Shown: positions 2,661 through 16,237 of the stretch, one piece after another
How positions within the stretch are numbered: position 1 is the stretch's first letter
How the letters are laid out: each line of letters opens with the position of its first letter
Source of the DNA: Thermosynechococcaceae cyanobacterium Okahandja
GTDB lineage: Bacteria > Cyanobacteriota > Cyanobacteriia > Thermosynechococcales > Thermosynechococcaceae
Length of the DNA: 64,000 nt
Assembly: GCA_041530395.1 (NCBI GenBank)
Contig: CP136945.1
Coordinates: 2,418,001 to 2,482,000 of the forward strand
Direction of reading: 5' to 3'
Translations under genes and position numbers: made by a program
Notes under the pieces: generated by a model
Told to the model about the DNA's origin: nothing
Seen by the model: the letters and a program-made list of their open reading frames with translations, nothing else
The model's database searches: none

Positions 2661-3005
2661 ATGCTGGCTCCTGTCCTCCTTGCCCTCACCCTTGCTCCGT
2701 TTGAGCCTTCAACCCTGTATAGCTCCACGGCTAGCAGTGACCTCTACCGCTACTGCCGCGTTAACTTTGGCATCGTAAGCTATTGTGGCCGCTGGTTTAC
2801 GGGCAAAACGGTTCTGTGGGATCGCAATGCCTATCGGACGTGCCATGTCTTTAACGGGCGGCTCAGCTACTGTGGCCGTTGGTTCACCGGCGAAACGGTA
2901 CTGCTTATCGATAACGCCTACCGCACCTGCCGCATTTTTAATGGCCGCCTCAGCTATTGTCGCCAGCGCTTTAGTGGCGAGGCCATTCTCAAAGAGGCTC
3001 CCTAG
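2661..3005 (+). CDS. Small protein of tandem cysteine/aromatic repeats, unknown function
   Basis: A 114-residue protein I do not recognise. After a hydrophobic start (MLAPVLLALTLAP) that could be a weak signal peptide, about 29-residue units repeat two and a half times. Each unit carries SYCGRWFTG followed by (K/E)TVL, then NAYRTC and FNGRLS; the last unit is degenerate (SYCRQRFSGEAIL). The DNA repeats too, with mostly synonymous differences, which argues that the reading frame is selected. Cysteines are spaced regularly, so disulfides in the periplasm are possible. The gene is 14 bases downstream of the oxidoreductase, and its stop codon overlaps that of the convergent malic enzyme gene. Confidence 0.6.
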   Translation: MLAPVLLALTLAPFEPSTLYSSTASSDLYRYCRVNFGIVSYCGRWFTGKTVLWDRNAYRTCHVFNGRLSYCGRWFTGETVLLIDNAYRTCRIFNGRLSYCRQRFSGEAILKEAP

Positions 3006-6042: not shown

Positions 6043-6327
6043 TTAGCGCTCCACCTTCACCCCCCGCCAAAAGGCCACATACCCTTTAATGTTGGCAGCG
6101 GCAGGCTTGGGGTCAGGATAGTACCACGCTGCATCCCGATTGATTTGGCCGTTCACCACCACGTGGTAGTAGCTGGCGGTGCCTTTCCAGCCACAAACGG
6201 TGTGGGTATCACTGGGCTGAAAGTACTCCTGATGGAGAGCCTCCGGCGGAAAGTAAACGTTGCCTTCCACCACTTCGTAGCGATCGCTCTCGGCAAGAAT
6301 GACGTTATTCCATGTTGCTGTTGCCAT
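6043..6327 (-). CDS. DUF427 domain protein
   Basis: A 94-residue DUF427 protein with the family pattern: ESDRYEVVEGNVYFP near residue 12, HTVCGWKGTASYYHV near 42 and AAWYYPDPKPAA near 68. These small beta-barrel proteins are common in cyanobacteria and their biochemical role is not known. The gene converges on metF with 3 bases between the stops. A HIP1 octamer lies within it near 6282, while none is seen in the restriction-modification genes that follow. Confidence 0.85.
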   Translation of the reverse strand: MATATWNNVILAESDRYEVVEGNVYFPPEALHQEYFQPSDTHTVCGWKGTASYYHVVVNGQINRDAAWYYPDPKPAAANIKGYVAFWRGVKVER

Positions 6328-6398: not shown

Positions 6399-7322
6399 TT
6401 ACGGCTCACACAAAACGGATAATTCATCCAACCATGATAACTCTCTACCAATAACCAATTCCTTCATTGTCGCGTGATGGGTGTTCTTCATTGGAATCAA
6501 CCGCATCTGAAACCCATGCCTGCAAGCCATTTCCTTGACTTCTTCTGTCTCATCGTAGGTTATCAAAAAATTTCCAGCGAGCGACTCGCATATCGTAAAG
6601 AGATATTCATGATCAAGCTGATAATGCTTATAAAGACGCCTGCCCGCCTTTTTCCCGCCAACAGTATAGGGCGGATCAATGAAATAGATTGCATCCTCGC
6701 GACCGGCAAAAGCCACCATCACCTTTAATCCATCATCGCAACGAAAATCAATCCTACTGGCAATATGATTGAGACTGACCAGCCTCTGAGCAAGCGTTGT
6801 TGGATACCATCGAGAGCCAATTCCTTTTCCATTCTCCCCATGCCTTATGAAGCGTGATCCTGCGGCAAGGATGCCTCCATGTAACGTCCGATTCTTAAGA
6901 ATGGTTTGAAATGCCTTCTCCCTCTTTGTCACCGCAGCTTTTCCTAAGGCATTTTCAACATTTTCTCTTGTTATTTCAAAATTCAGTATCCGCCTAGCCA
7001 ACCAGTCCGCGTCACCACTAAAAACAGTATCCCAGACTGCGGCCACTTCCTCATCCAATTCGACCATAACCGCCCGTTCAACTAAATTCTCAAAGAGAGC
7101 GGTAAGGCTAATGATGCCACCGCCTGCAAAGGGTTCAATAAGAATCTCTGGCTTGGTGTCTAAGCTGGCTATCCAGCGCCGGAATGTTGGTACGAACCAT
7201 GTCTTTCCACCAGGATAACGGAAGGGACTGCGCTGTGGAATCGATGCAACATTTACCGGACGAGGCAGAGCATCATCCTCAGATGACTCAGAAAATAATG
7301 ATAGTTGTTTCTGAGCCGCCAT
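6399..7322 (-). CDS. D12-class N6-adenine DNA methyltransferase
   Basis: A 307-residue Dam-like (D12 class) adenine methyltransferase. SPFRYPGGKTW at residues 32-42 and EPFAGGGIISL near 63 form the S-adenosylmethionine site; the catalytic motif IDPPY lies near residue 215. It is the likely modification enzyme of the restriction endonuclease encoded just upstream. The frame can open with TTG at 7328, but the ATG at 7322 is preferred; it follows the endonuclease stop by two bases, so translation is probably coupled. The DNA is AT-richer than the surroundings and lacks HIP1, consistent with acquisition by transfer. The target sequence cannot be read from the protein. Confidence 0.9.
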   Translation of the reverse strand: MAAQKQLSLFSESSEDDALPRPVNVASIPQRSPFRYPGGKTWFVPTFRRWIASLDTKPEILIEPFAGGGIISLTALFENLVERAVMVELDEEVAAVWDTVFSGDADWLARRILNFEITRENVENALGKAAVTKREKAFQTILKNRTLHGGILAAGSRFIRHGENGKGIGSRWYPTTLAQRLVSLNHIASRIDFRCDDGLKVMVAFAGREDAIYFIDPPYTVGGKKAGRRLYKHYQLDHEYLFTICESLAGNFLITYDETEEVKEMACRHGFQMRLIPMKNTHHATMKELVIGRELSWLDELSVLCEP

Positions 7323-7324
7323 GA

Positions 7325-8212
7325 TCAAAACGGCCTCTCAATTGTTTGGGTTATTGGTGGAGTTTCAAGTTCTTCATCAAGTCTTTCCTGAAGGAACTGA
7401 ATGAAATCCTCCATTCTCCCGGGCATTGGTGTGGTAATTGAAAGCAAAGCGGACTCAAACTCAGTAAAAACCTCATCCACCTTCATGAGTTGGTATCGCT
7501 CTGACCCATGCCCCTCGTCCGAGCGTAATTTTAGATCATAGATCAGCCATGCAATACCTGCCTCACCTTTTGGGACTTGTTTGAACGTGGGTAACGTGGC
7601 AAAAAAGCTTTTGTTAAGCGCCACGGCAATTTTCTTGTCCCAACGATGCAAGATACCACCTTTGTAAAGGAGTTGGGGGACAAGTCGCTTTCGCGATGAC
7701 GAAAGGTAATCAGGACGGGGATAGTTTGGTTCTTTTGACCAATTCATTAGCGCTCTACTCTGAGGATCGCGCATGTAGTGCTCAAACGGTTCACGCACAT
7801 TGCCGGAAATGTAAACAGCCTGAATCTCGAGGGAGCCAAAGTCAATAACCTTTCCCTGATCATCATAGGCAACGAGAACCACATCAATATTTCCGGCAGA
7901 CTTGCCATTGACATCATTCAAACGTACTTCAGTCAAAGAAGTCCACCTTACGCCTTCCTCAAAAAAGAAAGAAGCAGCATGCTCAGCAACAACCCAGTCT
8001 TGACGGAATCGGATGGGGCAAGTAATGACAGGCTCATCATCGGCATAGATACTGCACACTCCAAGAGGATTCTTGGCCTTGTCTTTAGTGCAATTTGGCA
8101 CCCGGTTGTTGAATGGGCAGAGGCGAAGAGAACGATAGCGCCTTGCCATCTCGGTTTGATCCGTGACCAGATGACCAAAGACCTCTGCCAGTGGCTGTTG
8201 GCGATGACTCAT
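7325..8212 (-). CDS. NotI-family type II restriction endonuclease
   Basis: A 295-residue protein that matches the NotI family. Four cysteines at 32, 41, 53 and 65 (LCPFNN, NC, GVC, TCP) correspond to the Cys4 iron-binding domain known in NotI. The PD-(D/E)XK-type centre appears as E95, D110 and E129-I-Q131; NotI has the same ExQ variant and the same 15-residue spacing between the first two acidic residues. It is shorter than NotI (383 residues). The gene precedes the methyltransferase, with TGA-TC-ATG at the junction. A function in cleaving unmodified foreign DNA follows from family and context; the cut site is unknown. Confidence 0.82.
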   Translation of the reverse strand: MSHRQQPLAEVFGHLVTDQTEMARRYRSLRLCPFNNRVPNCTKDKAKNPLGVCSIYADDEPVITCPIRFRQDWVVAEHAASFFFEEGVRWTSLTEVRLNDVNGKSAGNIDVVLVAYDDQGKVIDFGSLEIQAVYISGNVREPFEHYMRDPQSRALMNWSKEPNYPRPDYLSSSRKRLVPQLLYKGGILHRWDKKIAVALNKSFFATLPTFKQVPKGEAGIAWLIYDLKLRSDEGHGSERYQLMKVDEVFTEFESALLSITTPMPGRMEDFIQFLQERLDEELETPPITQTIERPF

Positions 8213-8247: not shown

Positions 8248-8475
8248 TTACTTCAGCCATCCGGCACTGAGAGCCACTGTTAGCGCCATAAACAACACCG
8301 TTAATGTCCAAGTGGCACGGTTGAGCGTTGTCTCGGCACTTTTGGTACTCGTAAATAACTGCGCCTGGCCGCCAATGCCGGCCAAACCATCCCCCTTGGG
8401 ACTATGGAGCAGCACCAACACAATTAACCCCAGAGCCGAAAATGCCCAAATGCCCGTGGCGATCGTTTCAATCAT
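8248..8475 (-). CDS. secG: Preprotein translocase subunit SecG
   Basis: A 75-residue membrane protein with two transmembrane segments (about residues 7-25 and 54-73) and the SecG loop LLHSPKGDGLAGIGGQAQLF between them. SecG assists SecYEG-mediated export in the plasma and thylakoid membranes. SecY is encoded in the ribosomal cluster at 39033-40343. The ATG at 8475 is supported by the first hydrophobic segment starting soon after it. It is transcribed away from fbp. Confidence 0.93.
   Translation of the reverse strand: MIETIATGIWAFSALGLIVLVLLHSPKGDGLAGIGGQAQLFTSTKSAETTLNRATWTLTVLFMALTVALSAGWLK

Positions 8476-15970: not shown

Positions 15971-16237
<267 letters not shown>

What the first reader, a model, noticed from the sequence alone, without database searches (positions are those of the whole stretch)
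6399..8212. NotI-family endonuclease paired with an adenine (D12) methylase
The endonuclease keeps the four-cysteine iron site and the E/D/ExQ centre of NotI but is nearly 90 residues shorter. Its partner is a D12 adenine methyltransferase, so the recognition site must contain adenine, unlike the all-G/C NotI site. The pair may therefore have a novel specificity, in a thermophile.
Basis: partly seen in the sequence, partly recalled or inferred. Interest (0 to 1): 0.62.

Follow-up and report, generated by a model that had tools for sequence, protein, structure and literature searches.

The report
Cyanobacterial NotI-type restriction system, perhaps CAGCTG
A cyanobacterium carries a two-gene DNA-cutting defence system whose cutter belongs to the NotI family and whose protector methylates adenine; it is an uncharacterised member of a widespread known kind, and the scarcity of CAGCTG in its genome hints that this is the sequence it cuts.

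Summary
7325-8212(-) encodes a 295-aa PF12183 (NotI) endonuclease with NotI's four cysteines and E/D/ExQ centre; its model matches NotI nearly end to end. A D12 adenine methyltransferase follows directly (6399-7322, -). The pair is not new as a kind: it stands together in 75 of 78 usable related loci of many phyla, and plasmid records already carry the names 'NotI family restriction endonuclease' and 'DNA adenine methylase' side by side. Shortness is normal in the family. The methylase class is a weak guide to the site: two NotI-family enzymes 82% identical sit beside a C5-cytosine and a D12 methylase respectively.

New here is a candidate site, CAGCTG. In the window's genus the two intact carriers hold 57 and 29 copies per genome; eight non-carriers hold 217-443, one with a broken copy 172. 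The two carriers are not sisters and hold the genes at different places. CAGCTG ranks first of 448 palindromes in carriers against four pooled non-carriers. Against: Nitrospira shows no contrast, some carriers elsewhere are not depleted, and many cyanobacteria without the enzyme also lack CAGCTG. If right, the specificity is PvuII's, protected by m6A instead of m4C. No cleavage or methylation data exist.

The parts
7325..8212 (-). R gene: NotI-family (PF12183) type II restriction endonuclease, 295 aa; cysteines C32, C41, C53, C65; catalytic residues E95, D110, E129, Q131
6399..7322 (-). M gene: D12-class (Dam-like) N6-adenine DNA methyltransferase, 307 aa from ATG 7322 (309 aa if TTG 7328 is used); PFAGGG motif and DPPY motif
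8248..8475 (-). secG, upstream neighbour on the same strand; R starts 35 bases past its stop codon
6043..6327 (-). DUF427 (PF04248) gene, downstream neighbour

Best explanation
A horizontally acquired two-gene type II restriction-modification system. R, a shorter relative of NotI (PD-(D/E)XK nuclease with a four-cysteine metal site), probably cuts both strands of a palindrome as a dimer. M, a Dam-like D12 methyltransferase, puts a methyl group on the adenine of the same palindrome and so protects the host; incoming phage or plasmid DNA without the mark is cut. The most likely site is CAGCTG, with M making C(m6A)GCTG on both strands. Shown here: gene identity, fold, conserved active sites, conserved pairing, patchy distribution and foreign base composition, and loss of CAGCTG in the two carriers of the genus. 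Inferred: activity of both enzymes, that they share one site, which site, dimerisation, metal, and defence against phages.
For: R: PF12183 E 5.5e-66; model matches NotI 3c25 first in Foldseek (E 1e-7; next unrelated row E 0.035) and VIA-align (Z 13.2, 251 residues, model 5-287 on NotI 12-365); active site and cysteines kept. M: D12, DPPY in 42 of 42 relatives, model closest to Mcbe1, Dam, DpnM and T4Dam. Pairing: M directly behind R in 75 of 78 loci with 200 bases or more after R (80 of 113 relatives kept). Foreign origin: operon 46.8% GC against 56.0% for the window; PF12183 in 3 of 11 genomes of the genus, one of them broken. Site: the unbiased scan of 448 palindromes with R-M status known and CAGCTG not yet in view ranks CAGCTG first, 12 observed of 158 expected in G000 and 5 of 139 in G008 against 47 of 145 in four pooled non-carriers (first noticed among 64 hexamers). 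Whole genomes then gave 57 and 29 in the two intact carriers, 172 in the genome with the broken copy, and 217-443 in eight non-carriers, four of which were not in the scan. G008 is 92% identical to non-carrier G005 but about 76% to G000, and the flanks of its R-M genes find no match at the window's place, so the two losses look independent. G008 against G005: rank 1 of 448, p 2.9e-6; G000 against G003: rank 3, p 3.2e-4; non-carrier against non-carrier: ranks 205 and 247. PvuII-family endonuclease PF09225: no match in 11 genomes. CAGCTG holds both A and C, as a site shared by an m6A- and an m5C-type partner must.
Against: No enzyme activity or methylation data. CAGCTG is avoided by many bacteria without this enzyme: by my hand count, about 40 cyanobacterial genomes without a PF12183 match are at or below the window genome's 20 per Mb. 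G000 against G005, its nearest sampled neighbour, ranks CAGCTG only 9th. Carriers without depletion: G398 2613 in 7.7 Mb, G460 703 and G499 301, G549 1029, and 7 of 50 far carriers above 200 per Mb. In Nitrospira, genomes with and without R are equally low. Around G426 low counts are common, R status unknown. The PF09225 control genomes were silent too, so absence of a PvuII-type enzyme is not shown, and other restriction systems shared by G000 and G008 were not sought.
Confidence: 0.6

Rival explanations
1. Same kind of R-M system, but its site is another A-containing palindrome, possibly longer or degenerate; the loss of CAGCTG in G000 and G008 comes from other restriction systems or general avoidance.
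For: CAGCTG is scarce in many genomes without R; several carriers are not depleted; in G000 other palindromes stand out as much or more against G003 and G005.
Against: CAGCTG is the only one of 448 palindromes low in both carriers to this degree against pooled non-carriers and ranks first between near neighbours G008 and G005; no 8-base palindrome stood out (where expected counts were small).
Confidence: 0.3
2. R is inactive or the two genes are not partners, so that M is in effect a solitary methyltransferase.
For: No activity data; broken R-M copies exist (G009; L020); L070 and L085 hold an R-like frame with no M behind it.
Against: All catalytic residues and cysteines are present in the window's R and in 45 of 45 (C32: 44 of 45) aligned relatives; the frame is open over its full length; pairing in 75 of 78 loci.
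Confidence: 0.08
3. A PD-Lambda-5-type defence system (methyltransferase-containing prophage system) rather than a plain type II R-M system.
For: The best PADLOC model for M is PD-Lambda-5_B, E 6.4e-38; the same model is best for the methylases of pIJB1 and Thermus brockianus.
Against: R matches no PD-Lambda-5 model, only REase_II, E 2.3e-8; [quoted passage not shown]
Confidence: 0.03

Closest known systems
NotI restriction endonuclease (PDB 3c25, 3bvq)
   Same: Fold over nearly the whole length, four cysteines and E/D/ExQ centre.
   Different: 88 residues shorter, about 15% identity; partner is a D12 adenine methyltransferase; the NotI site GCGGCCGC (recalled) has no A, whereas this site should.
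NotI-family endonuclease plus DNA adenine methylase on plasmids: Thermus brockianus pTbrSNM4-1c, pIJB1, Aeromonas veronii 4-kb plasmid
   Same: Same two families side by side; the Thermus pair is the same subfamily (R 71%, M 60% identical). pIJB1 M is 47% identical.
   Different: pIJB1 and Aeromonas endonucleases are only about 30% identical to the window's R and may have another site.
NotI-family endonuclease plus C5-cytosine methylase (Sedimenticola, Paraburkholderia pBN5, Variovorax plasmid 6, phage vB_Pae_U8)
   Same: PF12183-type endonuclease with the same cysteines and active site.
   Different: Partner is PF00145 (three of the four checked; phage one by its annotation).
PvuII R-M system (CAGCTG)
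   Same: Proposed recognition sequence.
   Different: PvuII's endonuclease is another Pfam family (PF09225) and M.PvuII is listed as m4C (passage of PMC10073500); CAGCTG methylase of S. Agona is also m4C (passage of PMC4490842).
Dam / DpnM / T4Dam
   Same: Fold of M, DPPY and PFxGGG motifs.
   Different: 12-19% identity; Dam family model TIGR00571 far below its cut-off (30.9 against 114.85 bits).

Membership tests
NotI family endonucleases (PF12183) | Sequence match above the curated cut-off | tested here: met
   222.7 bits against 22
NotI family endonucleases (PF12183) | NotI fold | tested here: met
   Foldseek top three rows are NotI; VIA-align Z 13.2, rmsd 4.7, 251 aligned; the model is of middling confidence, pLDDT 70.9, and residues 30-72 (the cysteine region) are below 50
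NotI family endonucleases (PF12183) | Four-cysteine metal site | tested here: met
   Cysteines align and are kept; metal binding itself not testable here
NotI family endonucleases (PF12183) | E / D / ExQ catalytic centre | tested here: met
   E95, D110, E129, Q131
NotI proper | Cuts GCGGCCGC | not testable with these tools
   No activity data; not expected with an m6A partner
Type II R-M system | Endonuclease and methyltransferase genes adjacent and co-inherited | tested here: met
   75 of 78 loci with room
Type II R-M system | Both enzymes act on one site, methylation blocks cleavage | not testable with these tools
   Only indirect: loss of CAGCTG in carriers
D12 N6-adenine methyltransferases (PF02086) | Family match, DPPY motif, Dam-like fold | tested here: met
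   43.6 bits against 22; DPPY in 42 of 42
PvuII-type specificity | Recognises CAGCTG | tested here: inconclusive
   Strong contrast within the genus, mixed or none elsewhere
PD-Lambda-5 | Both components of the system | tested here: not met
   Only M matches (PD-Lambda-5_B); R matches REase_II alone

The most novel reading that the evidence does not exclude
A NotI-fold enzyme that reads CAGCTG, differing from the NotI/EagI core CGGCCG only at the inner purine-pyrimidine pair (both are CRGCYG), cutting it with a 5' overhang as NotI does (C^AGCTG, a neoschizomer of blunt-cutting PvuII), protected by m6A; one mobile gene pair of this kind has spread through many phyla and largely emptied some host genomes of the site.
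Probability: 0.35. Interest if true: 0.5.

Novelty: new member of a known kind. Interest (0 to 1): 0.36.

Why it matters
If the site is CAGCTG, it gives a NotI-fold enzyme with an A-containing site to set beside NotI, useful for learning how that fold reads sequence, and possibly a heat-stable CAGCTG cutter with new ends. The gene pair is spread over many phyla and is named in databases, but I found no site or activity for it. For people who transform such cyanobacteria, the system is a barrier that could be avoided by removing CAGCTG or pre-methylating DNA.

Tried and rejected
NotI by direct sequence: single-sequence phmmer and the close-family profile gave no PDB hit at E <= 1; only the family-wide profile did.

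Site as an 8-base palindrome like NotI's: no 8-mer stood out, but expected counts were small.

GTCGAC, TTTAAA, GTATAC, GACGTC are also very low in carriers but low in non-carriers too. GGCGCC, GCCGGC and others separate G000 from G005 more strongly than CAGCTG does, but not G008 from G005.

Chlorobiota. Of 41 genomes, 12 have R at E < 1e-100; fewer than 40 CAGCTG per Mb in 10 of 12 against 6 of 29 others (Fisher p 3e-4). I do not lean on this: the low genomes are probably one clade, 4 of the 10 (G475, G483, G484, G488) hold only a methylase-free paralogue or fragment, and G504 (weak R match, 54 copies) was counted as a non-carrier. The palindrome scan on Chlorobiota stretches (CAGCTG first of 448, 1 against 36) is circular, because I picked its 6 carriers and 5 non-carriers after seeing their CAGCTG counts and left out the exceptions G460, G499, G474 and G493.

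Nitrospira: no contrast. Relatives of G426: R status not searched, cap reached.

Hot-spring-type carriers: in six loci (L008, L009, L010, L067, L082, L248; 65.7 kb) CAGCTG has the lowest z of 64 hexamers, 4 against 18.7 expected. No non-carrier control, loci chosen by me with some genome counts already seen, L004 and L012 left out.

Pooled far carriers: CAGCTG second lowest z of 64, among several commonly avoided palindromes; no control.

Promoter and terminator scan: as many hits as in shuffles, within error. The reading 'PD-Lambda-5' from the M hit was rejected since R does not fit.

Papers: searches are search listings; passages only of PMC9519451, PMC4490842, PMC4393132, PMC10073500. The NotI structure paper is not held. 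In the listings shown I saw no report of m6A at CAGCTG and no paper with NotI and PF12183 together; REBASE itself could not be searched.

Full report
What is there. On the minus strand a 295-aa gene (7325-8212) and a methyltransferase gene (6399-7322, or to 7328 if the TTG start is used) stand head to tail, between secG (8248-8475) and a DUF427 gene (6043-6327). The host is a cyanobacterium: PsaC lies at 15992-16237. The operon has 46.8% GC against 56.0% for the window, and third-position GC of 0.46 and 0.44 against 0.59-0.65 in three neighbouring genes, which fits recent arrival.

The endonuclease. Pfam places it in PF12183 NotI with E 5.5e-66. PDB sequence searches with the protein alone or with a 45-row alignment of close relatives do not reach NotI at E <= 1; a 17-row family-wide alignment does, at 4.5e-8, and only NotI. 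There C32, C41, C53, C65 and E95, D110, E129, Q131 fall on NotI's cysteines and its E, D and ExQ. In A1 (45 of the 74 intact frames listed) they are kept in 45 of 45, C32 in 44 of 45. The AlphaFold model is of middling confidence (pLDDT 70.9; residues 30-72, the cysteine stretch, below 50), yet Foldseek's first three rows are NotI (E about 1e-7, next row 0.035) and VIA-align covers residues 5-287 at Z 13.2. The 88-residue difference in length is real but not special: full-length relatives run mostly 285-297 aa.

The methyltransferase. D12 (PF02086), DPPY in 42 of 42 aligned relatives (42 of the 71 intact frames), model closest to Mcbe1, Dam, DpnM and T4Dam. The best PADLOC model is PD-Lambda-5_B, a label that automatic defence annotation might attach; the endonuclease does not fit that system.

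A conserved, mobile pair. A scan of genome contigs found 113 relatives, of which the best 80 were kept, 60-84% identical. Of 78 loci with at least 200 bases after R, 75 have M directly behind it on the same strand; L070 and L085 have none and L020 has a damaged M; two loci end at R. In the tree of R the window's protein groups with Roseilinea, Pyrinomonas, an Anaerolineae MAG, the Thermus brockianus plasmid and G008 (SH-aLRT 95, short search). In the window's own genus 3 of 11 genomes have a PF12183 match, G009's being broken; among 386 genomes of the phylum 6 do, two of them partial.

Known before. Plasmid records already name such neighbours 'NotI family restriction endonuclease' and 'DNA adenine methylase'. 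Other NotI-family genes stand beside C5-cytosine methylases. The endonucleases of Paraburkholderia pBN5 (beside a C5 methylase) and pIJB1 (beside a D12 methylase) are 82% identical. If their sites are the same, the site holds both A and C, and partner class alone says little.

A candidate site. Restriction sites are often depleted in host genomes (general knowledge). I took 400-kb samples of G000 (plus the window) and G008, and 100 kb each of four non-carriers, before looking at any site. CAGCTG stood out among 64 hexamers and was first of 448 palindromes of two three-base halves with gaps of 0-6 (12 of 158 and 5 of 139 expected against 47 of 145). Whole-genome counts then gave G000 57, G008 29, G009 (broken copy) 172, and 217, 225, 252, 261, 349, 351, 353, 443 in eight non-carriers; G004, G006, G007 and G010 had not been in the scan. 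G008 is 92% identical to G005 and about 76% to G000 in the stretches compared, and the flanks of its R-M genes find no match at the window's place, so two separate losses are likely. With 500 kb each of G005 and G003 added, G008 against G005 ranks CAGCTG first (p 2.9e-6 before correction for 448), G000 against G003 third (3.2e-4), G000 against G005 ninth (4.0e-4), and the two non-carriers against each other 205th and 247th. One-base variants such as CAACTG and CACCTG are not depleted.

How far it carries. Elsewhere the picture is mixed. Of 50 far carriers examined (of 80 loci), 18 have fewer than 40 CAGCTG per Mb, some strikingly few (8 in 2.8 Mb, 9 in 3.3, 12 in 1.9, 18 in 3.9), but 7 have more than 200. 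In 41 Chlorobiota relatives, 10 of 12 carriers against 6 of 29 others are low, without correction for kinship and with the reservations given under Tried and rejected. In 41 Nitrospira relatives, low counts do not follow R: carriers have 12, 23, 101 and 1029, and several non-carriers 25-85. In 386 cyanobacteria the four genomes with full-length PF12183 matches have 57, 22, 182 and 2613, and roughly 40 genomes without any match are as low as the window's by hand count. So CAGCTG is a common target of avoidance, and the case rests mainly on the contrast within the genus. No PvuII-type endonuclease was found in the genus, but the search's control genomes were silent too.

How it most likely works. 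R cuts unmodified palindromic sites as a PD-(D/E)XK dimer; M methylates the single adenine of CAGCTG on each strand. A cut after the first base would follow from NotI's GC^GGCCGC (recalled); it is a guess. CAGCTG and the NotI/EagI core CGGCCG are both CRGCYG, which would make the change of site a modest step for one fold; this is inference. The type of system I hold at above 0.9, the site at about 0.55-0.6.

Verdict. It is an ordinary, widespread type II system of a known family, uncharacterised in what I could search, with a testable site prediction.

Noticed in passing
L166:985-2322:+, L176:763-2325:+, L178:1498-2943:- (Chlorobiota genomes G488, G478, G489): A NotI-type domain carried at the C-terminal end of a 445-520 aa protein (Pfam NotI at 192-408 in L166; N-terminal part without a Pfam match at E 0.001), with no methylase frame seen beside it in the 3.8-kb loci. 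A further paralogue (L166:2929-3780:-) has ExH in place of ExQ; in L166, L168 and L169 two copies sit close together on opposite strands.
   Followed up: partly
L094 and L095: Two NotI-family endonucleases 82% identical stand beside a C5-cytosine methylase (plus a very short patch repair endonuclease gene) in one plasmid and a D12 adenine methylase in the other: an exchange of partner class within one endonuclease lineage.
   Followed up: partly
L005, L006 (G009): A broken copy of the same R-M pair in a same-genus genome, R in two frames and M in fragments; that genome has the lowest CAGCTG count after the two intact carriers, 172.
   Followed up: partly
window 2661-3005, +: A 114-aa frame with an 87-base unit repeated about 2.1 times, with YCGRWFTG-like repeats; no Pfam or NCBIfam match at E 0.001.
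   Followed up: no
G454 relatives (Nitrospira): Low CAGCTG counts across nearly the whole near group whether or not R is found, unexplained.
   Followed up: no
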